Source of the DNA: Thalassospira profundimaris
GTDB taxonomy: Bacteria; Pseudomonadota; Alphaproteobacteria; Rhodospirillales; Thalassospiraceae
Direction: 5' to 3'
Assembly (NCBI RefSeq): GCF_003326795.1
Contig: NZ_JPWI01000009.1
Location: 124,001-188,000 of the forward strand
Length of the DNA: 64,000 nt
The position numbers and the translations under genes are program-made. A model generated the notes under the pieces. It saw only the letters and a program-made list of their open reading frames with translations. It did not search any database and had not been told where the DNA came from. Of this stretch, positions 5,665 to 27,078 are shown piece after piece (within the stretch, counting starts at the first letter, position 1; each line of letters begins with the position of its first letter).

Positions 5665-6326
5665 GCAAGCTTAAACTCGCCGTTCTGATTTCAGGCGGCG
5701 GGTCCAATTTGCAGGCCATCATTGATGCCTGCAATGCAGCTGACTACCCTGCCGAAATCGTTCTGGTTTTCTCAAACCAGCTTGACGCAGGCGGGCTTGA
5801 ACGCGGCCGCAAGGCAGGCATCCGCGCCGAAGCCATCCCGCACAAGGGCTATCCCGGCGGGCGCGAAGCCTATGACGCGGCGGTCAGCACCCTGATCGAG
5901 GAAAGCGGTGCGGATCTCGTGGTGCTTGCCGGATATCTGCGACTGGTCAGTGAAAGCTTTGTCACCCGCTGGAAAGACAGGCTGATCAATATTCACCCGT
6001 CGCTTCTGCCAAGCTTCAAGGGCCTGCATGTTCATCAGGCTGCCCTTGATGCCGGGGTCAAATTTGCCGGATGCACCGTGCATTATGTTGTCCCCGAAGT
6101 CGATAGCGGCCCGATCATCGCCCAGGCAGTCGTCCCTGTTCTTCCCGGCGATGATGCGGGCAAACTCGCCCAGCGCATCCTGCGTCAGGAGCACCGCATT
6201 TATCCGCAAGTGATCCGCTGGATCGCCGAGGGCCGGGTATCGGTCGATGCCAAGGGCATCGTGACGGTTGCCGACGCCCCGCAGGCCGATTTTGCTGAAA
6301 TCAACCCAGCACTCGAGCCCGGATGA
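5652..6326 (+). CDS. purN: Phosphoribosylglycinamide formyltransferase
   Basis: GAR transformylase, which moves a formyl group from 10-formyltetrahydrofolate to GAR, the third step of purine synthesis. At 224 residues it is near the normal length. Visible motifs are the phosphate-binding GGGSNLQAI near the N-terminus, the catalytic [13 protein letters not shown] block with its His, and [16 protein letters not shown] with the catalytic Asp region. The ATG lies inside the last codons of purM. The operon ends at a strong hairpin 45 bp downstream. Confidence 0.96.
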
Positions 6327-7199: not shown

Positions 7200-7745
7200 T
7201 CAGATCGTATCTGTCACATAAGTGACGACATCAAAGCCCTCGTGAATGGCTGGTGGTTGAAAAGCCGCACAAATCTGGTGGAACTGGGTGTCACTGGCCG
7301 CAAACTGATGCGTTCCCGTCCGGTTGCGTGCGCGCAGGCGCTGCTTGCAGACATCTTCATCCAGATCAAGAAAATGCAACTTGTGACCGGCTCCGGCATC
7401 TTCGTATATCTGCCGCATCCAGCCGCGCAAGGTCACGGTATTGGCCGGAAAATCAAGCACCACGGAAATCCCCGACATCAGCAACATGCTGACATGCGGG
7501 CCCATGACGGTGCGAAGTTTCCCTGAAACACGGATATAATCGGCAACAGAGGTCATCTGATCGCCAAACAAGACCGAAAGCCATTCATCCTCGGCAATCA
7601 GAACTGTTCGGGGTTTTCGCGCCAGTTCTGCGGCAAGCGTGGATTTTCCGGCGGCGATCTTTCCGCATAACATATGCAGCACGGGGGCCGCTTGGGCTGG
7701 TTCGGCTGGTTGACGTCGATCTTGATGCGATGGCGCAGGCTGCAT
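7200..7745 (-). CDS. P-loop kinase-like ATPase (AAA_33 / zeta-toxin-like fold)
   Basis: A 181-residue cytoplasmic protein with Walker A GKIAAGKSTLAAELA at about residue 28 and the layout of small P-loop kinases: a conserved Asp-Glu after the second strand (LIAEDEWLS), VVLDFPANT, then LDLDEDVCKQRLRARN, which resembles a lid and base-recognition region. Similar proteins are annotated as AAA family ATPase or predicted kinase; the substrate is unknown. The start has AAGGGAG upstream. It sits antisense between two CoxIV microgenes, and a terminator-like hairpin lies in its own 5' leader about 40 bp before the ATG. Confidence 0.75.
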   Translation of the reverse strand: MQPAPSHQDRRQPAEPAQAAPVLHMLCGKIAAGKSTLAAELARKPRTVLIAEDEWLSVLFGDQMTSVADYIRVSGKLRTVMGPHVSMLLMSGISVVLDFPANTVTLRGWMRQIYEDAGAGHKLHFLDLDEDVCKQRLRARNRTGTHQFAASDTQFHQICAAFQPPAIHEGFDVVTYVTDTI

Positions 7746-7784
7746 TTAAATCTCCCTTGTTCAAAAATACCGGGAGACAGCCAC

Positions 7785-7807
7785 AAAAAACCCGCCTCGC
7801 CGGCGGG
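7785..7807 (-). terminator. Terminator hairpin in the kinase 5' leader
   Basis: Read on the minus strand: CCCGCC, a five-base loop, GGCGGG, then six T. It lies upstream of, not after, the kinase gene (start at 7745) with no other minus-strand gene ending here, so it is either an attenuator or the end of a small RNA. Confidence 0.75.
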
Positions 7808-8057
7808 TGGGTTTCATTTGGTCAAAACGTCGCTACCCCGCCATCCTGTGAATGGCGGTAAAAATTCGTGCAGATGCATTGGTTACAACATTTTCCATAC
7901 CGGCATCATTGCATGGAGACCCTGCCTTGTCCACAACGTTGCGGCGCACAAAACGATCCGAGAACAAAAGATATTCACCCACAGGTTAAATATCGCTAAG
8001 ATTTGTCTGTTGTCTTGATTGATAGCCGGGGTACCCCCGAAATCCGAAACAATCGGA

Positions 8058-19890: not shown

Positions 19891-19952
19891 CCCTCTCGCT
19901 TTAGCCGCATTTTTATCGCGCCCGCAAGCTGAGGAGCAAATCGGCGCGTTCG
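19891..19952 (-). promoter_or_regulatory. SAM-II riboswitch upstream of metNIQ
   Basis: Reading the minus strand, the leader has a CGCGCC...GGCGCG P1 stem, a GATTTG segment, then ATAAAAATGCGGCTAAAGCG and GAGAGGG. This follows the layout of the crystallised SAM-II aptamer upstream of metX (CGCGC-GAUUU...GCGCG-U-GAUAAAUG-GCUAAA-AGGG), a pseudoknot that binds S-adenosylmethionine and is common in alphaproteobacteria. High SAM would be expected to switch the importer off. Confidence 0.85.
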
Positions 19953-20042
19953 ATTGCTCTTGTGTACCTGACTGGACGCCGTTCATCAATGGCAATGATC
20001 ATGCATTTTACGCATAGCTTTCATGAAGTTGAAATATACAAC

Positions 20043-20055
20043 ACAAATATTTTGT
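20043..20055. repeat. Small perfect palindrome upstream of the deiminase operon
   Basis: ACAAA-TAT-TTTGT, in an AT-rich patch about 85 bp before the first gene of the operon and inside wider TTGAA/TTCAA arms. It could be a regulator site; no regulator is suggested by the neighbours. Confidence 0.35.
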
Positions 20056-20137
20056 TCAAAAGCCCCCACCAGTCGGCATTCACAAACCCGCTGCTGTCCC
20101 GTCTAGGGATGGTCAATATCAAAGCGGGATTGGACAG

Positions 20138-21028
20138 ATGGCCTATGCCGACCGGATCAATGACCTTGCCAGAACACTGGCCCAGTACCCGACCGTCGTG
20201 ACGGTCACGGGCAACAAGGTGGATGTCCGTACCAAGACACAGCTTTCCACCCTGTCATCGGAAACGGCGTCGCTTGAAAAGCTAGCCGCCGAAGGTGATG
20301 TGGCGATTGCCAGTGGCAAATGCCCGGATGCCGCAAATCTTGCATCCAGGCTGTCCTCCGGTGCCGGTCAGATATCGGCGACCCTGTCGGCCTTTCGCGC
20401 GCAGGACGCCGAACGCCTGAAATCCATGAGCATCTTTAGCAAACAGAAATTCGATGCCAGTGCCGCAACACGCTATCAGGCCGAGAAACGCTTTGCTGAT
20501 GAAATTGCAAAACTTCTGACCCAAGAGTCTCAGGCGGTTGGTTCCCTGCAAGGTGGCAGCGGCGTCAAACCCGATCCCAAGCCACAACCTCAGCCTCAGC
20601 CCCAACCAACACCGGTCCCGACACCAGTTCCGACCCCAACGCCAACTCCGACGCCAGCACCGGCCCCCTCGCCCGTGCCGTCCTTGCAGGATGTCGTCGC
20701 ATCTCTGCCCGGATACTTGCAGATCACCATTCCCGACGCGGTCGCGGGCTACGACGCCGACAGTCTGGCGAACGCGAGCAAAGCCGCCGGGGATGCCGCG
20801 ATCAAGCTTGGCGCGAAAACCCCCGACGGGATCACTGATTATGCGACGGCGCAATTCACAGGTGGCCCGGACGTCTTCAGCCAGCCTTGGGCCAGCGCGA
20901 TCCTGAAAGATACCGGTCTTGGCACCATTGATGACCGGATTGCGGTTTTAAACAACGCACTTCAGGCACGGCAACTGATTGCCGATGCGTTGCACGAAAC
21001 CCCATCCCACGAACCTAGCAGCCGCTGA
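20138..21028 (+). CDS. Unknown protein with a long proline-rich hinge, deiminase operon gene 1
   Basis: A 296-residue protein that I do not recognise. Residues 1-138 look helical with many Ala, Ser, Lys and Glu; residues ~144-182 are a low-complexity hinge of PQ, TP and AP pairs; residues ~183-280 form a second compact region (LQDVVASLPGYLQITIPD...). There is no signal peptide or membrane helix. Proline hinges of this kind separate independently folded domains, often in exported or surface-associated proteins. It lies 7 bp upstream of the arginine deiminase gene and is surely co-transcribed with it. Confidence 0.7.
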   Translation: MAYADRINDLARTLAQYPTVVTVTGNKVDVRTKTQLSTLSSETASLEKLAAEGDVAIASGKCPDAANLASRLSSGAGQISATLSAFRAQDAERLKSMSIFSKQKFDASAATRYQAEKRFADEIAKLLTQESQAVGSLQGGSGVKPDPKPQPQPQPQPTPVPTPVPTPTPTPTPAPAPSPVPSLQDVVASLPGYLQITIPDAVAGYDADSLANASKAAGDAAIKLGAKTPDGITDYATAQFTGGPDVFSQPWASAILKDTGLGTIDDRIAVLNNALQARQLIADALHETPSHEPSSR

Positions 21029-21035
21029 GGACGCC

Positions 21036-23366
21036 ATGGCAAATTACACCGTCCAGCTGACCGCCCCCGCCGGAGTTTACCCGTTTAACACGGTACGTGT
21101 TTCACTTACCTGCGTGGGCCAGCCACAACAAATCCAGAATGTCGTCCTTACGCCGAATGTCGCGGTTTCGCGTGTATTCAACATCCCAAACGGCACATGG
21201 GACCTTGAGATTTCCGGTGCCGGTTTCGTGCCTGTCAACGAACAGAACATTGTTGTGAATGGCGATGCCGTCAATGCGAAGAATCTCGATGTTGTCTGGT
21301 ATACGCTTCATACTGATCGCAATCGCGATGGCAATCTGGATGATGCCGGTCTCCTTAATCAGGTAACACCGGGGGCAATCACCTATGGCACCGCCGGTGT
21401 GGGCGCGATCATTCCGGTCAACTGCAATCGTGACGGCAACAATACCGCTGCCGGATACACGGATAATCAGGATCAGCGGGTCAATGGTAACAATGACCTT
21501 GTCACCGGCACATCCCGCCTTGAAATCCGGCGAAATGCCCTTGGCCCGAATGCAGGTGCCCCGGCTATTCCGGTGGGCTGGAGCTTGCTGTTAAGCGTGA
21601 TCGGAACCCTTGGCGAAAACCCTGCCCAACAGCATTTGCGGATTTTCGACGGGATCCTGAATAACAGCGCCGAAATCATTGGCCCCGAAACGACCCACAG
21701 CGTCCCGATCACCACCGTCACTGTCGGTGCGTCCAAACTCTATGCAGTTGAAGCCGTCCGGTTTGCGGGCACAGGATTTACATCCGGGCAAATCCGCATC
21801 GCCCTGAACGTGATCCAGCAGGAAGTCACAGGGAATGGCAATCCCACCTATCTCTTTGCAGACCGGGTTGTCGTTGCGCGCTGGATCGGCAATCATCATC
21901 GTCAAACTGTTTCGCAGATTTATGTTGTCGATGCCAATAATGCCAACTTTCAAGCGGCCCTTGGCGTTCCCGTTGCCAACGAAAACCCGCCCTACGCCCT
22001 GACATTGGCCACACCGGGCACGTCCGCACTCACACACGTTCCCTATCTGAACGGCAATGCCTGGCAGAATTTCATTGCTGCGGGAAGAATCGCGAGGCCC
22101 GGCATCAGCAGGGATCGCTGGATGCGCGATACCATTGTCTCAGGTCACAGTGTCTGGCCAGGAAACGGAGCAGGTGTTCAAAGCAAGGACACCTTCATGA
22201 AAGCTCATCGCTGGCGGTCATTACAGAACTGGATTTACCAAACGCTGATCAGCCAGAATGTAGGGCTGTATTACCCTGCTGCCGGGAGTGCTGATGGCAT
22301 TAATGACGGCAATTCCGGGGGTAATATTGCCGTTACGCCCCCGGTGCAGAAAACGGTGAACGGAGCGACAGCCTATTACCGATATGGACGGATCTATTTC
22401 GGCAACAATGTCCAGAGCACCGTGGATCAAAGCAGCAGAGACTTCTTTGATGCGCAGAACATGCAGCCGCCAATCACACTGAACACTGACTGGTTGGCGG
22501 TTGGTCATGTGGACGAGATGATGACATTCGTTCCGGACGACAACCCGGCCAATGCCTTCAAGAAATGGAAACTGCTGATCGCAAGCCCGGCAACGGCCTA
22601 TGGCATTCTGCGCAATAACCGCAATGCACATGGCAACGCGCCACTTATTGCGCGCCCGCCACATTCGCCGGGCAATGCGACCCCAAACTTTGCAGGGCTT
22701 AGCATCGGCAACGCCATAGATGCGACCGGCACAATCACCGACTTCCTGGGCAACGGGCAGGCCCCAACAAGCTGGCAGGATATCAATACCGGGAACTTAC
22801 AAAACTACACATACAAACAACTCAGAGACTGGAATATCTATGGTATTGAAAATCTGATCAATCAGAACATCCGTCGATTAAAGGCAGCGTTCGATCTGAC
22901 GGACAATGATATCATCAAGGTGCCCGTAATCTTCATTCCCGTGCATCAGATCAATGGTAACTTCACAATTTCTGACAAGATCAGCTTCTGGACAATTGGT
23001 GCAGATAACGGCTTCAATATTTATCCGGGTCGAGAATGCGGTTTCCGCAGTGGCGCCATGACCGGGGATATGGTCAATATGTTCGTCGGGAACGACAAAC
23101 TCATGATTCCCAAGCCTTTTGGTCCCTGGATTGTCGACAACACAATGCCCAATAACGGTCATGATCTGTTTGAGGACGATATCAGACAGAAGATCGCGGC
23201 AATTCAGAACGGTCCGGAATGCGTCTTTATTGATGACTGGGACGACTACCATGTCGCGCATGGCGAGATTCACTGCGGCACAAATGAACTTCGCGCCCCC
23301 TATGACGGCCAGACGGCCTTTGGCAATGCGCGCTATGCAAACTGGTGGACGGCGGTCGATGCCTGA
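21036..23366 (+). CDS. Bacterial protein-arginine deiminase (PAD family)
   Basis: A 776-residue homologue of the calcium-dependent peptidylarginine deiminases (PF03068), which turn protein arginine into citrulline. All four catalytic residues of animal PAD can be placed: Asp365 in RDRWMRD (Asp350 in human PAD4), His491 and Asp493 in WLAVGHVDEMMTFVP (His471, Asp473), and Cys747 in HGEIHCGTNELRAPY (Cys645). Residues 1-85 look like an immunoglobulin-like domain. Asp/Asn-rich loops at 94-103 (DRNRDGNLDD) and 131-150 (NRDGNN...) resemble calcium sites. No signal peptide. The ATG at 21036 has TGAGGA upstream and replaces a longer frame from 20979. Confidence 0.9.
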   Translation: MANYTVQLTAPAGVYPFNTVRVSLTCVGQPQQIQNVVLTPNVAVSRVFNIPNGTWDLEISGAGFVPVNEQNIVVNGDAVNAKNLDVVWYTLHTDRNRDGNLDDAGLLNQVTPGAITYGTAGVGAIIPVNCNRDGNNTAAGYTDNQDQRVNGNNDLVTGTSRLEIRRNALGPNAGAPAIPVGWSLLLSVIGTLGENPAQQHLRIFDGILNNSAEIIGPETTHSVPITTVTVGASKLYAVEAVRFAGTGFTSGQIRIALNVIQQEVTGNGNPTYLFADRVVVARWIGNHHRQTVSQIYVVDANNANFQAALGVPVANENPPYALTLATPGTSALTHVPYLNGNAWQNFIAAGRIARPGISRDRWMRDTIVSGHSVWPGNGAGVQSKDTFMKAHRWRSLQNWIYQTLISQNVGLYYPAAGSADGINDGNSGGNIAVTPPVQKTVNGATAYYRYGRIYFGNNVQSTVDQSSRDFFDAQNMQPPITLNTDWLAVGHVDEMMTFVPDDNPANAFKKWKLLIASPATAYGILRNNRNAHGNAPLIARPPHSPGNATPNFAGLSIGNAIDATGTITDFLGNGQAPTSWQDINTGNLQNYTYKQLRDWNIYGIENLINQNIRRLKAAFDLTDNDIIKVPVIFIPVHQINGNFTISDKISFWTIGADNGFNIYPGRECGFRSGAMTGDMVNMFVGNDKLMIPKPFGPWIVDNTMPNNGHDLFEDDIRQKIAAIQNGPECVFIDDWDDYHVAHGEIHCGTNELRAPYDGQTAFGNARYANWWTAVDA

Positions 23367-23396
23367 TATCATCGCACATGAAAAGGGAGTTTCCCG

Positions 23397-24026
23397 ATGA
23401 GTGCACAAAGTGACTATCAACAGGCCCTCAAAGATATTTCCAGTCTTGCCAGCTCGATGGAAGACCGCATTTCAAATCGCCCCGCCCCTTACACGGTTGA
23501 TCAGATTTTCCGTCGATATAGTGGCACGATTGCGGCCCCGATGATTGACGATCTCAAGGCCGGGGTCTGGAAAAAATGGGAAAACTGGCAGCTTGGCGGG
23601 GCGATATCCTATCTGGGAAGTTATGGCACGTCGGCCGCTGTCGCGCCGTTGCGCGAGATCGAACAAAACTATCCGGTTAACGATATTCAGAAACAGGCAA
23701 AGGAACTTGCCGATTTGTTGGCGACACTTGATGTTGCAGTATCGGAGGCCAAGCAAATCCCGCAGGTTCAGGACGCGATCAAAAGCGGTGATGCCGATCA
23801 GATGGCGCGGAGCATGCTGTTGGGACTTGCACAAATTGATCCCGACTGGCCTGTGCGTGCATCGGAGATCCAGACAAAGCTGTTTGACCTGGCATCCGAC
23901 AGTTTCCCGGCAATCAATGAAATGGCTGCGGGAAAATTGACCGAGCAAGACGTAACAAAGGCACTGGTGGAAATCCTGTTTGCCGAATTCCTTCCGGGCC
24001 CTGGCACCACACAACCCAAACCTTAG
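23397..24026 (+). CDS. Unknown helical protein, deiminase operon gene 3
   Basis: A 209-residue soluble protein, predicted by eye to be mostly helical, with a tryptophan cluster (VWKKWENWQLGGAISYLGSYG, about residues 57-77) and a short proline-rich end. No signal peptide, membrane segment or family I recognise. It starts 30 bp after the arginine deiminase gene with AAAAGGGAG as ribosome site, so it belongs to the same operon. A partner, chaperone, immunity or substrate protein are all possible; nothing in the sequence decides. Confidence 0.68.
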   Translation: MSAQSDYQQALKDISSLASSMEDRISNRPAPYTVDQIFRRYSGTIAAPMIDDLKAGVWKKWENWQLGGAISYLGSYGTSAAVAPLREIEQNYPVNDIQKQAKELADLLATLDVAVSEAKQIPQVQDAIKSGDADQMARSMLLGLAQIDPDWPVRASEIQTKLFDLASDSFPAINEMAAGKLTEQDVTKALVEILFAEFLPGPGTTQPKP

Positions 24027-24052
24027 CGGCAAGGGTCCCATGAATGCACATT

Positions 24053-24703
24053 CTATCGCTGGGTAAAAAGCAGCTTTAAAAAACTGCGCAGCAGCATGAC
24101 CTGATCGGCGAGTTTGCGGGGCTCGTTGAGTGCCTTTGACATGACAATCCCGCCTTCGAGCACGGTTGAAATCATGTCGGCGACCTGTTCGAGGTCGACC
24201 GGCTCGGTCGTCTGGTACTGGTCTGCGATATCGTCAAGGATCGCGCGGAAACGGGTGCGCCAGGCCAGAACGGCGTGACGGTTGAGATCACGGACTTCCT
24301 TGTCAAACAGCCGTTCCTGATAGCAATAGACCGCAACGATGCAGCCCGGATGACCGTTGGGCAGATCTTCGAGCACCTCGGCCAGCATTTTAAGCGCTGC
24401 CAGCAATTGATGCAGCGGATCGTCGACCAGTTCGCGGGCGCGATCAAACACCTGATCGAGGATTTCGTCATCCTGTTCAATATAGCGTTGCAAAAGTGCG
24501 CGGGCGAGTTCGTTCTTATCGGAGAAATGATAGAAAAACCCGCTTTTTGTCAGTCCGGCTTCGGCAATGATTTCCTCGATCGAGGTCGCACCGAAGCCCT
24601 TTTCCAGAACTGCCTGTGATGCGATTTCCAGAATGCGTTCGCGCGTGCGTTCGCCCTTGCGTTTCGGGCCACCGAACGTGTCGGTGATTGTCAGTTTTTC
24701 CAT
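24053..24703 (-). CDS. TetR/AcrR family transcriptional regulator
   Basis: A 216-residue regulator with the TetR helix-turn-helix at about residues 18-62 (RERILEIASQAVLEKGFGATSIEEIIAEAGLTKSGFFYHFSDKNELARALL) and a C-terminal ligand domain like the 'TetR_C' group that often includes HPGCIVAVYCYQERLF. It is convergent with the deiminase operon and divergent from the homocysteine methyltransferase gene, which is therefore the likeliest target. Confidence 0.92.
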   Translation of the reverse strand: MEKLTITDTFGGPKRKGERTRERILEIASQAVLEKGFGATSIEEIIAEAGLTKSGFFYHFSDKNELARALLQRYIEQDDEILDQVFDRARELVDDPLHQLLAALKMLAEVLEDLPNGHPGCIVAVYCYQERLFDKEVRDLNRHAVLAWRTRFRAILDDIADQYQTTEPVDLEQVADMISTVLEGGIVMSKALNEPRKLADQVMLLRSFLKLLFTQR

Positions 24704-24938
24704 CTCAACCCCCGCTTACCCTACCGCCGGTACAGTTTTTCGTCGTCAAAGGCCGCCATGGCCGCGCCGAAAAACACCGGATAAATCATAAGCATCTGTT
24801 TTGAATATATTTTTGAAAATCTGAAAAACCTGACCGTGTGCCTACTAGAAGCAAAACTCAATCAGGGCGAGATTTCCGATCCGCGATTACATACCCCCGC
24901 GGTAGAAATTTTGAAACCCAAAACTGAAATTTGGACCC

Positions 24939-25901
24939 ATGAGCACAGGCAATCTGCACCTTCCGCCGCACGGAAAGGCAAAATTCATCACCGATGGCGG
25001 TCTTGAGACCACCCTGATCTTTCATGACGGGATCGACCTGCCGCATTTTGCATCCTTTGACCTTCTGAAAACGGATGCGGGCTGCGCGCGTATCACCGCC
25101 TATTACGAACGTTATCTTGATCTGGCCAAGCAGGCCCAAGCCGGATTTATCCTTGAAAGCCCGACATGGCGCGCCAATCGCGACTGGGGGGCCAGGATCG
25201 GCTATGACGAGGATGACCTGGCCGATATCAACCGCAAGGCCATTGGCCTGATGGCGGAGCTTCGCGATCGTTATCATTCTGATGCAACACCGTGCCTGAT
25301 CAGTGGCAATATCGGACCGCGTGGCGATGGGTATGTGCCATCGGACCGGATGACGATCAATCAGGCGCGCGCCTATCACGCCCCGCAGATTGTGACTTTT
25401 GCCAAGGCGGGGGTCGACATGGTGTCGGTCGTGACCATCAACTATCCCGAGGAAGCCATCGGCATCGCCCTTGCGTGCCGGGATGTTGATATTCCTTGCG
25501 TCATTTCGTTCACTGTTGAAACCGATGGCAACCTGCCCAGCGGCGAGACGATCCGTGATGCGATTGCCATGGTTGATACCGAAACCGGGACCTATCCGGC
25601 CTATTACATGATCAACTGTGCCCACCCGGATCATTTCCGCGACCGATTGCACGAAAACGGCGACTGGAAAACGCGCATTTGTGGTCTGCGGGCCAATGCA
25701 TCGCGCCAAAGCCACGCCGAACTTGATGCCAGCACGCATCTTGATGATGGCGATCCGGAAGAACTGGGCCAGCTTTATCACGATCTGGCTGATCTGCTGC
25801 CAAATCTGGCGGTGATTGGCGGCTGTTGCGGCACAGACCATCGCCATGTTGCGGCTATGACCAAACATGCCCTGCCGCGCCTTTTGGCCACGGGCGCATA
25901 A
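24939..25901 (+). CDS. Homocysteine S-methyltransferase family protein
   Basis: A 320-residue (betaine/S-methylmethionine type) methyltransferase that would make methionine from homocysteine. TDGGLETTLIFHDGIDLP opens the barrel, and the zinc-binding cysteine triad is visible as INCAHP plus GGCCGTDHRH at the C-terminus. No cobalamin domain is attached, so the methyl donor is probably a sulfonium or betaine compound. The start ATG has only a weak ribosome site. A GNAT gene follows 40 bp downstream. No SAM-II element is present in its leader, unlike metNIQ. Confidence 0.9.
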   Translation: MSTGNLHLPPHGKAKFITDGGLETTLIFHDGIDLPHFASFDLLKTDAGCARITAYYERYLDLAKQAQAGFILESPTWRANRDWGARIGYDEDDLADINRKAIGLMAELRDRYHSDATPCLISGNIGPRGDGYVPSDRMTINQARAYHAPQIVTFAKAGVDMVSVVTINYPEEAIGIALACRDVDIPCVISFTVETDGNLPSGETIRDAIAMVDTETGTYPAYYMINCAHPDHFRDRLHENGDWKTRICGLRANASRQSHAELDASTHLDDGDPEELGQLYHDLADLLPNLAVIGGCCGTDHRHVAAMTKHALPRLLATGA

Positions 25902-25941
25902 GAACCAAACACGAAAACCCAAAAAGAACAGGATACGAGCA

Positions 25942-26589
25942 ATGATTGCAGAACCCGTACTGGAACGGGCGGCACATAAGGGTGCCGCCCGTCCGCGCCA
26001 CCCGCACCCGGTCACGAGCTTTGTCAGAGCGACAAAATCGGATGCCGATGCGATGGCCCAGCTGATCAATATCGCCGGTGAAGGTTTGCCGGTCTATTTG
26101 TGGCAAGACATGGCAGAAGGCAGCGAGACGGTCTTTGATGTCGGTCGCAGACGCGCACAACGTGAAGAAGGCGGTTTTTCATATCGCAACACCACCCTTG
26201 CGGTCCATCATGGTGAAACCGTTGCGGCACTTGTCGATTATGCCCAACCTGATCAGCCAGAGCCCTTTGACCCGGCCGATATCCCGGCGATATTCGTACC
26301 GATCCTTGAACTTGAAAATCTTGCACCGGGCAGCTGGTACATCAATGTCCTTGCCGTCTTTCCGGCCCACCGCGATCAGGGGATTGGATCGGCATTGCTT
26401 GCACGGGCCGAGGCCAATGCACGACATGCCGGTAAAAAGACCGTCAGCCTGATTGCATCGGATGGCAATCCCGACGCAATTCGCCTTTACCAACGCCAAG
26501 GCTTTGTGGCCTGTGCCCAACGCCCGATGGTCAAGGAGGGTTGGGAAAATCGTGGTCAGAACTGGGTGTTATTGATCAAGGAAATCTGA
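25942..26589 (+). CDS. GNAT family N-acetyltransferase
   Basis: A 215-residue acetyltransferase. The acetyl-CoA loop (VFPAHRDQGIGSALLARAEANA) and the following SLIASDGNPDAIRLYQRQGF motif mark the GNAT fold; an N-terminal ~60-residue extension precedes it. The ATG at 25942 has AGGATACGAG upstream and is chosen over a start at 25867 that overlaps the previous gene. Probably co-transcribed with the homocysteine methyltransferase; the acceptor substrate is unknown. Confidence 0.87.
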   Translation: MIAEPVLERAAHKGAARPRHPHPVTSFVRATKSDADAMAQLINIAGEGLPVYLWQDMAEGSETVFDVGRRRAQREEGGFSYRNTTLAVHHGETVAALVDYAQPDQPEPFDPADIPAIFVPILELENLAPGSWYINVLAVFPAHRDQGIGSALLARAEANARHAGKKTVSLIASDGNPDAIRLYQRQGFVACAQRPMVKEGWENRGQNWVLLIKEI

Positions 26590-26607
26590 AAAGAACCGTG
26601 AAACAAC

Positions 26608-26640
26608 AAAGGCCGGAAGCGATCAGCTTTCGGCCTTTTT
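26608..26640. terminator. Terminator between the GNAT gene and holC
   Basis: AAAGGCCGGAAGC and GCTTTCGGCCTTT form a stem with one mismatch and a short loop, then a T-run. It overlaps the holC stop region and can work for both convergent genes. Confidence 0.85.
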
Positions 26641-27078
26641 CTCCCACGCGCCTTGCGGGGATTGCTGCCAGTAGGACAGCTTGTGACCGGCGTCTTTCCA
26701 GTCTTTCCAGCGCGTGCGGGCCTCGGCCACCGCATCATGGTCACGATCATCAAACAGCATGATGACGCGTTCGTACTCCGCGACCTTGTCGCTCATCGCA
26801 CGGTCGGTCAGAAACAGGAACTGGGCATTGTTGGGATTTTCATCCTCGGATGTCAGCCAGACGGGCTGCATTTCCGGATCACCATCAGCGGCAGAACCAT
26901 GGGGCAACCAGCTTGCCGGATCATAGGTCCAGAGAAGCGTGTTGATCGCATCGATGCGCTGATCATTACCGGTCATCACCACAGCACGTTTTTCCCGCTC
27001 CAGCGTTTTGGAGAGCAGGGTGGGAAGTGCGCGTTCCAGCGGCAAGCTGGTGAGATGATAGAACCAGATGTCAGCCAT
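26623..27078 (-). CDS. holC: DNA polymerase III subunit chi
   Basis: A 151-residue chi subunit, which ties the clamp loader to single-stranded DNA-binding protein. The family opening (WFYHLTSLPLERALPTLLSK) and the C-terminal block where chi ends in a conserved RWKDWK-like helix are clear. The 82 bp gap from pepA upstream and the terminator in it suggest partly independent transcription, though pepA-holC neighbours are usual in proteobacteria. Confidence 0.92.
   Translation of the reverse strand: MADIWFYHLTSLPLERALPTLLSKTLEREKRAVVMTGNDQRIDAINTLLWTYDPASWLPHGSAADGDPEMQPVWLTSEDENPNNAQFLFLTDRAMSDKVAEYERVIMLFDDRDHDAVAEARTRWKDWKDAGHKLSYWQQSPQGAWEKKAES

What the first reader, a model, noticed from the sequence alone, without database searches (positions are those of the whole stretch)
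20138..24026. Bacterial protein-arginine deiminase operon with two unknown partners
Peptidylarginine deiminases are best known from vertebrates; bacterial members of this calcium-dependent family are few and mostly uncharacterised. The protein at 21036-23366 keeps all four catalytic residues (Asp365, His491, Asp493, Cys747) in the right motifs, plus Asp/Asn-rich loops that look like calcium sites. It sits 7 bp after a gene for a protein with a long proline hinge and 30 bp before a gene for a helical protein; I recognise neither. This could be an undescribed protein citrullination system, for instance one that modifies the flanking proteins, a toxin, or self proteins. That the three work together is inferred from tight spacing.
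Basis: partly seen in the sequence, partly recalled or inferred. Interest (0 to 1): 0.78.

Follow-up and report, generated by a model that had tools for sequence, protein, structure and literature searches.

The report
Three-gene bacterial protein-citrullination cassette, allelically diverse
Many strains of a marine bacterium carry, as one three-gene block that exists in very different versions, a relative of the human enzyme that turns protein arginine into citrulline, next to two proteins of no known family; in this relative the calcium-binding residues at the active site have been replaced.

Summary
21036-23366 encodes a protein-arginine deiminase (Pfam PAD 5e-63, PAD_M 5e-8); Asp365, His491, Asp493 and Cys747 are invariant in 17 of 17 orthologues. 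Contig matches identify the genus as Thalassospira. Upstream gene A, the deiminase and downstream gene C occur, at full length, in the same 17 of 29 genomes of the genus, always in this order between metN and holC; at least six gains or losses of the whole are needed. The other 12 genomes hold that site without it. So the three-gene unit is well supported.

The calcium reading is half right. PAD_M sites Ca3 and Ca5 are largely kept, but five of six active-site (Ca1, Ca2) side-chain ligands are lost in 17 of 17; the sixth survives in 4.

New here: the deiminase, with C and the C-terminal part of A, is exchanged between strains. Near-identical chromosomes carry deiminases whose segments are 43-61% identical, while the N-terminal part of A follows the chromosome. 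T6SS export is excluded; hydropathy shows no membrane helix. I favour an intracellular citrullination module in a genetic conflict (enzyme likely, role inferred).

The parts
20138..21028 (+). gene A: 296 aa orphan family; N-terminal part (1-138), Pro/Thr hinge (about 143-181), C-terminal part (181-296)
   Evidence: 17 orthologues; window protein matches no family over cut-off; full length only in the 17 PAD-bearing genomes of 29
20138..20551 (+). N-terminal part of A, which follows the species' chromosome rather than the PAD allele
   Evidence: Spearman 0.87 (residues 1-60) and 0.82 (61-135) with flanking housekeeping genes, 0.07-0.28 with PAD segments
20678..21025 (+). C-terminal part of A, which goes with the PAD and C over all pairs (less clearly when the deepest allele split is left out)
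   Evidence: Spearman 0.74-0.91 with PAD and C segments, 0.27 with flanks over 136 pairs; 0.32-0.82 and 0.42 over 84 pairs; no Pfam or PDB match below E 0.1
21036..23366 (+). protein-arginine deiminase, 776 aa
   Evidence: PF03068 5.3e-63, PF08527 4.9e-8; PAD4 by profile 1.7e-54
21036..21302 (+). N-terminal about 89 aa, weakly like a carboxypeptidase-regulatory domain; no PAD_N match
   Evidence: CarboxypepD_reg listed for 11 of 13 members at E up to 1, best 1.7e-4, window member 17.7 bits against a cut-off of 32.3; no PAD_N
21303..21812 (+). PAD_M domain (residues 90-259) with Ca3 and Ca5 type ligands
   Evidence: PF08527 over cut-off; ligand table
21858..23306 (+). PAD catalytic domain (residues 275-757)
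   Evidence: PF03068
22128..22130 (+). catalytic Asp365 (PAD4 D350)
   Evidence: 17 of 17
22506..22514 (+). catalytic His491-Val-Asp493 (PAD4 H471, D473)
   Evidence: 17 of 17
23274..23276 (+). nucleophile Cys747 (PAD4 C645)
   Evidence: 17 of 17
22125..22202 (+). place of lost active-site calcium ligands: Arg364, Thr366, Val368, Lys389 in place of PAD4 Q349, E351, E353, D369
   Evidence: Arg, Thr and Lys 17 of 17; V/F/I at 368 17 of 17; ligand list from PMC5445078
23397..24026 (+). gene C: 209 aa orphan family, weakly HEAT-like
   Evidence: 17 orthologues, found only with the PAD in 29 genomes; HEAT_2 listed for 8 of 17 members, best 0.0011, and RIP (ribosome-inactivating protein) for 10 of 17, best 0.00059, both below the cut-off in the window's protein

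Best explanation
A, PAD and C are one functional unit: a cytoplasmic protein-citrullinating enzyme with two dedicated partner proteins. Shown: the three are held together in the same genomes and gained or lost together; the catalytic and essential substrate residues are intact; five of the six active-site Ca1 and Ca2 side-chain ligands are lost, two of them to Arg and Lys, while PAD_M sites Ca3 and Ca5 largely stay; the PAD and C (most firmly its residues 1-100), and less firmly the C-terminal part of A, change by exchange between strains; no type VI secretion and no membrane helix by hydropathy. Inferred: the fixed Arg364 and Lys389 stand where vertebrate PADs hold calcium, so the active site is preset and does not need the calcium switch; control comes from A and C instead. 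C, and the C-terminal part of A, bind the PAD and aim or restrain it, while the N-terminal part of A docks to something that belongs to the core genome. Divergent alleles at one site, swapped between strains, suggest frequency-dependent selection: most likely an intracellular conflict system (against phage or other invaders) in which the PAD citrullinates a target protein when A or C senses a trigger.
For: Co-occurrence: A at full length 17, PAD 17, C 17 of 29 genomes, the same genomes. Same order at the same site in 16 of 16 relatives that have it; 12 of 12 PAD-less genomes keep the site; fewest changes of state on the flank tree 6, of which starred branches force 5. Catalytic residues and calcium ligands; W347, R372, V469 equivalents 17 of 17 and their weight in PAD4 from PMC5314407. 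A Streptomyces PAD keeps Q349, E353 and E411 in the same alignment, so the loss of Ca1 is not an alignment fault. Exchange. No VipB (T6SS) in 17 of 17 PAD genomes. Highest 19-residue hydropathy 1.60 over 51 proteins. PAD dN/dS median 0.13 over the pairs where it could be computed.
Against: No activity, binding or phage data. No PADLOC model matches any of the three window proteins at E up to 1, and I recognised no defence genes among the neighbours looked at. With the 52 pairs between the two deep allele groups left out, the C-terminal part of A correlates with PAD segments only 0.32-0.60 and with the flanks 0.42, and C 101-196 with the PAD 0.27-0.40 and the flanks 0.42, so the firm block is the PAD with C 1-100. 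The C-terminal part of A covaries with C 61-196 better than with the PAD that lies between them, which nested recombination alone could give. Purifying dN/dS means the diversity comes from exchange of old alleles, not from positive selection shown here. Streptomyces has Arg where Lys389 stands, as aligned, so that change is not special to this group. Hypervariable sites beside the active site (488, 741, 742) are 3 of 30 such sites in 232 conserved contexts, so they prove nothing about specificity. Calcium can also be held by backbone oxygens, which sequence does not show.
Confidence: 0.5

Rival explanations
1. An ordinary calcium-regulated PAD that citrullinates the cell's own proteins; A and C are scaffold and regulator. 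Calcium acts through the PAD_M sites that remain.
For: Ca3 and Ca5 type ligands conserved (N129, N131, D143, D146, D154, E239 in 17 of 17, D133 in 16). The cyanobacterial PADI shows absolute calcium dependence (PMC8826395, passage).
Against: Five of six Ca1 and Ca2 side-chain ligands are lost, unlike Ca1 in the Streptomyces PAD. Absence from 12 of 29 genomes and alleles whose segments are 43-61% identical in near-identical strains do not look like housekeeping.
Confidence: 0.22
2. A secreted toxin or effector: the PAD is exported by an unknown route, A is the export adaptor, C the immunity or chaperone protein.
For: Pro/Thr hinge in A and a weakly CarboxypepD_reg-like N-terminus on the PAD, both common in exported proteins (recalled). 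C residues 1-60 covary with the PAD (0.82-0.93), as toxin and immunity pairs do (recalled).
Against: T6SS marker VipB absent from 17 of 17 PAD genomes and present in 4 of 12 PAD-less ones. No hydrophobic stretch typical of a membrane helix (no dedicated signal-peptide predictor was run). Other export routes (T1SS, T4SS, contractile injection) were not searched.
Confidence: 0.15
3. The PAD fold is kept but the protein no longer deiminates; it serves as a binding or structural component of a complex with A and C.
For: Loss of Ca1 and Ca2 ligands, which are part of the active site of PAD4 (PMC5445078, passage); R639 equivalent lost in 17 of 17 (position read).
Against: Catalytic tetrad and W347, R372, V469 equivalents invariant while identity to the window's PAD is 43-74%; R639A in PAD4 keeps about 40% of kcat (PMC5314407).
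Confidence: 0.1

Closest known systems
Vertebrate PADs (human PAD4, PAD2)
   Same: PAD_M and catalytic domains; catalytic D350, H471, D473, C645 and substrate W347, R372, V469 equivalents
   Different: No PAD_N match; a different about 89-aa N-terminus; most Ca1 and Ca2 side-chain ligands replaced; part of a three-gene unit
Actinobacterial and fungal two-domain PADIs (PMC8826395; Streptomyces sp. KN37 WP_320592483.1)
   Same: No PAD_N; two invariant His (H287, H288) where these have a triple-His motif; Ca2 side-chain ligands absent in both
   Different: They keep Ca1 (Streptomyces Q, E, E), here lost. The listed neighbours of the Streptomyces gene do not resemble A or C; C has no match in the plasmid collection, A was not searched there. 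The Streptomyces N-terminus looks like a signal peptide (by eye)
Cyanobacterial three-domain PADI (cyanoPADI, PMC8826395)
   Same: Bacterial member of the PAD family
   Different: That one has PAD_N, the active-site calcium sites and shown calcium dependence (passages); 'operon' occurs 0 times in the main text of the paper
Porphyromonas pPAD type
   Same: Citrullinating enzyme of a bacterium (recalled)
   Different: PMC8826395 sets pPAD apart from the PADIs (passage); no match to another deiminase family

Membership tests
PAD (PF03068) | Match to the PAD model over its curated cut-off | tested here: met
   213.8 bits against 25
PAD (PF03068) | Catalytic Asp, His, Asp, Cys | tested here: met
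   17 of 17
PAD (PF03068) | PAD_M domain | tested here: met
   PF08527 33.2 bits against 24.8
PAD (PF03068) | Deimination of protein arginine | not testable with these tools
   needs an enzyme assay
Three-domain, calcium-switched PADI (vertebrate and late cyanobacterial) | PAD_N domain | tested here: not met
   no PAD_N match for the full protein or for 13 of 17 N-termini scanned; their profile against the PDB, E up to 1, lists no PAD; a fold comparison could not be run
Three-domain, calcium-switched PADI (vertebrate and late cyanobacterial) | Ca1 and Ca2 side-chain ligands Q349, E353, E411; E351, D369, N373 | tested here: not met
   0 of 17 for five of the six, E411 4 of 17
Three-domain, calcium-switched PADI (vertebrate and late cyanobacterial) | Calcium dependence | not testable with these tools
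   Ca3 and Ca5 ligands largely present, so some calcium binding is likely
Type VI secretion effector | T6SS in the same genomes | tested here: not met
   VipB (PF05943) in 0 of 17 PAD genomes, 4 of 12 PAD-less
Known anti-phage defence systems (PADLOC-DB 2.0.0) | Match to a model | tested here: not met
   0 matches at E up to 1 for the three window proteins
HEAT-repeat proteins (gene C) | HEAT model over cut-off | tested here: inconclusive
   HEAT_2 listed for 8 of 17 members, best 0.0011; 17.7 bits against 27.7 in the window's protein
Ribosome-inactivating proteins (gene C) | RIP model over cut-off | tested here: inconclusive
   PF00161 listed for 10 of 17 members, best 0.00059; 13.8 bits against 21 in the window's protein, a 69-residue stretch; I read it as chance

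The most novel reading that the evidence does not exclude
A new kind of intracellular conflict system that uses citrullination as its weapon: a PAD whose active-site calcium is replaced by built-in Arg and Lys, controlled by two proteins of unknown families, kept as exchangeable alleles at one chromosomal site in response to phage or rival elements.
Probability: 0.27. Interest if true: 0.88.

Novelty: new variant of a known kind. Interest (0 to 1): 0.62.

Why it matters
The natural role of bacterial PADs is unknown to me and was not described in the passages seen. This locus gives a marine host not known to me as a pathogen, two fixed partner genes, a natural set of strains with and without the unit, and a clear chemical prediction (activity without the active-site calcium switch). 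If true it would show how a PAD can be wired without the calcium switch of the vertebrate enzymes, and would give citrullination a bacterial role that can be tested by deletion.

Tried and rejected
T6SS effector: rejected, marker absent from all 17 PAD genomes. The neighbouring TetR, methyltransferase and acetyltransferase genes as part of the unit: rejected, present in 7 of 17 PAD genomes and 5 of 12 PAD-less ones (counted). Mobile element: no tRNA found in the window, no relatives of A, PAD or C in viral contigs, no phage-record match for the PAD; no marked shift of composition (G+C 0.49-0.62 in the windows over the block, 0.52-0.59 beside it). Wider distribution: of 289 class genomes and 398 phylum genomes, drawn from larger groups and searched with PF03068, matches over the cut-off came only from this genus; two weak hits below it, L041 and L042, are judged false (by eye their frames look like a pseudouridine synthase and an isochorismate synthase). 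Plasmids: two actinobacterial records match the window's PAD. C profile in 385 class genomes: only the own genome. A against C by profile: no relation. Solved structures: nothing below E 0.05 for C or for the two parts of A. Promoter scan: none found, 3.2 expected by chance. Papers (listings only): nothing that bears on this under the words used. Specificity diversification at the active site: only suggestive.
Full report
What is there. Three genes run in one direction at 20138-24026: A (296 aa), a protein-arginine deiminase (776 aa) and C (209 aa), with gaps of 7 and 30 bp. The deiminase passes the Pfam cut-offs of the catalytic and the middle PAD domains and is the only PF03068 protein in its genome.

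One unit. Over 29 genomes of the genus, the PAD is in 17, A at full length in the same 17 and C in the same 17. Three further short hits to A (G002, G003 and the PAD-less G010) cover 42 to 83 query residues at or beside its low-complexity hinge, with E 3.5e-5 or weaker. The housekeeping gene holC, used as control, is in 29 of 29. In 16 of 16 relatives the order is A-PAD-C at the same chromosomal site, between a methionine-type transporter operon (metN side) and holC-pepA. In the 12 genomes without the PAD the site is there: 4 are empty, 5 hold a TetR, methyltransferase and acetyltransferase cassette and 3 hold what looks like a chemoreceptor gene (counted by me, chemoreceptor named by eye). 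On a tree of five flanking genes the presence of the unit changes state at least 6 times (5 forced by starred branches; 7 of 500 shuffles are as low). Against the empty site of G004, homology in G015 stops about 110 bp before A and resumes about 10 bp after C, with 66 bp between in G004; G021, the sister of G015, has the same two edges but holds other content between them; in G013 against G020 the edges lie 345 bp before A and 88 bp after C. This is much more than tight spacing: the three genes are inherited as one object.

The enzyme. All four catalytic residues are invariant in 17 sequences, whose identity to the window's is 43-74%. Of the PAD4 residues that PMC5314407 (passages seen) found critical for substrate binding, the equivalents of W347, R372 and V469 are also invariant; R374 is kept in 14 of 17, and R639, whose loss costs PAD4 about 60% of its rate, is lost in all 17. 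I therefore expect an active deiminase.

Calcium. The ligand list of PAD4 was taken from PMC5445078 (passages seen). In PAD_M the Ca3 and Ca5 ligands are present in 17 of 17, except that Asp155 is Asn in all and Asp157 is kept in 16; Asp179 could not be placed, and Asp388 (Ca4) is Asp in 7. At the active site, Q349 is Arg, E351 is Thr, D369 is Lys in 17 of 17; E353 is Val, Phe or Ile; N373 is never Asn; E411 is Glu in 4, the G003, G013, G015 and G026 group (group read). A Streptomyces PAD in the same alignment keeps Q349, E353 and E411, and has Phe and Arg where E351 and D369 stand. PMC8826395 (passages seen) states that site 1 appears fully conserved in the homologues it compared and that sites 2 and 4 are exclusive to the animal and late cyanobacterial clade. 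So loss of Ca2 is shared with two-domain relatives, and loss of the Ca1 side chains is the extra step here. That Arg364 and Lys389 replace the metal is inference. The first 89 residues show no PAD_N match and weakly resemble a carboxypeptidase regulatory domain.

Allele exchange. Between G007 and G008 five flanking genes differ at 9% of synonymous sites and 0.2% of non-synonymous ones, while their PADs differ at 77% and 30%. Along the DNA of G007 against G028, identity is 94-99% up to A and 86-96% in its first part, 58-74% through the PAD, and 96-98% after the middle of C. In G023 and G024 it is the other way round: PAD segments are 95-98% identical and the flanking proteins 92%. The PAD tree rejects groups that the flanking genes support (G023, G013, G026: p-AU 3e-5; the window, G002, G012: 4.5e-55; the five-genome group 0.02), but not G007 with G008 (0.20); only 6 of its 14 inner branches are starred and four rows are long. 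Pairwise distances over 136 pairs show which pieces go together: residues 1-135 of A follow the flanks (rho 0.82-0.87) and not the PAD (0.07-0.28), while the C-terminal part of A, the PAD and C follow one another (0.74-0.93) and less the flanks (0.17-0.39). With the 52 pairs between the two deep allele groups left out, the PAD (0.05-0.32 with flanks) still goes with C 1-60 (0.66-0.93) and C 61-100 (0.54-0.65), but the C-terminal part of A goes with the PAD only at 0.32-0.60 and with the flanks at 0.42, and C 101-196 with the PAD at 0.27-0.40 and with the flanks at 0.42. The C-terminal part of A then goes best with C 61-196 (0.73-0.82), although the PAD gene lies between. Direct contact of A and C, or nested crossovers round the PAD, would both explain it. 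Pairs of sequences are not independent, so the coefficients describe and do not test. dN/dS of the PAD has a median of 0.13 over the pairs where it could be computed: each allele is under constraint, and the diversity comes from exchange of old alleles.

The partners. A and C are orphan families. In the window's proteins no Pfam or NCBIfam match passes its cut-off; among other members the listed Pfam matches are weak (A: best 3e-7, Trypan_PARP, a proline-repeat family whose match in the window's A lies on the hinge; C: RIP in 10 of 17, best 0.00059, and HEAT_2 in 8 of 17, best 0.0011). PDB profile searches gave nothing below E 0.05. The PHROGs and NCBIfam hits of A all overlap its proline hinge. 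C was not found in 384 other class genomes or in the plasmid collection, and neither A nor C in viral contigs; A was not searched outside the genus elsewhere. The highest 19-residue hydropathy among the 51 proteins is 1.60, too low for a membrane helix.

How it probably works. The steps shown are unit, intact catalytic residues, altered active-site calcium positions, allele exchange and lack of T6SS. The steps inferred are that the enzyme is on without the calcium switch, that A and C aim or restrain it, that the conserved N-terminal part of A meets a core-genome partner, and that exchanged alleles at one site reflect conflict with phage or rivals. I put the functional unit at about 0.9, an active deiminase at about 0.8, loss of the active-site calcium switch at about 0.6 and a conflict role at about 0.3.

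Comparison with what is known. Bacterial PADs are a known kind (295 species counted in PMC8826395, 69 of them proteobacterial; passage), so the enzyme is a new variant and not a new kind. That a three-gene PAD unit in this genus is not in print rests only on the searches; the words operon and Thalassospira do not occur in the main text of PMC8826395.

Noticed in passing
window 19911-27078 (metN to holC) and L049-L060: The metN-holC interval is a variable site of the genus: empty, TetR-methyltransferase-acetyltransferase, a chemoreceptor-like gene, the PAD unit, or mixtures.
   Followed up: partly
L038 about 6189-6320 and L060 about 7702-7941: Fragments of the 3' end of holC lie beside the site in two genomes (G003 with the PAD unit, G021 without), as direct repeats of the intact holC; they may be scars of insertion or loss.
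   Followed up: partly
window 20040-20056: A near-perfect palindrome, AACACAAATATTTTGTT, about 80-100 bp before A, recognisable by eye in several but not all of the 17 upstream regions; perhaps an operator of A or of metN.
   Followed up: no
window 7787-7868, minus strand: Rfam P9 small RNA (described from Pseudomonas) over its gathering score, E 6.3e-8.
   Followed up: no
L038 4120-6156: In G003 an AraC-like regulator and a short-chain dehydrogenase (named by eye) lie between metN and A.
   Followed up: no
L061 11218-13125: A Streptomyces plasmid PAD whose listed neighbours do not resemble A or C and whose start looks like a signal peptide.
   Followed up: partly
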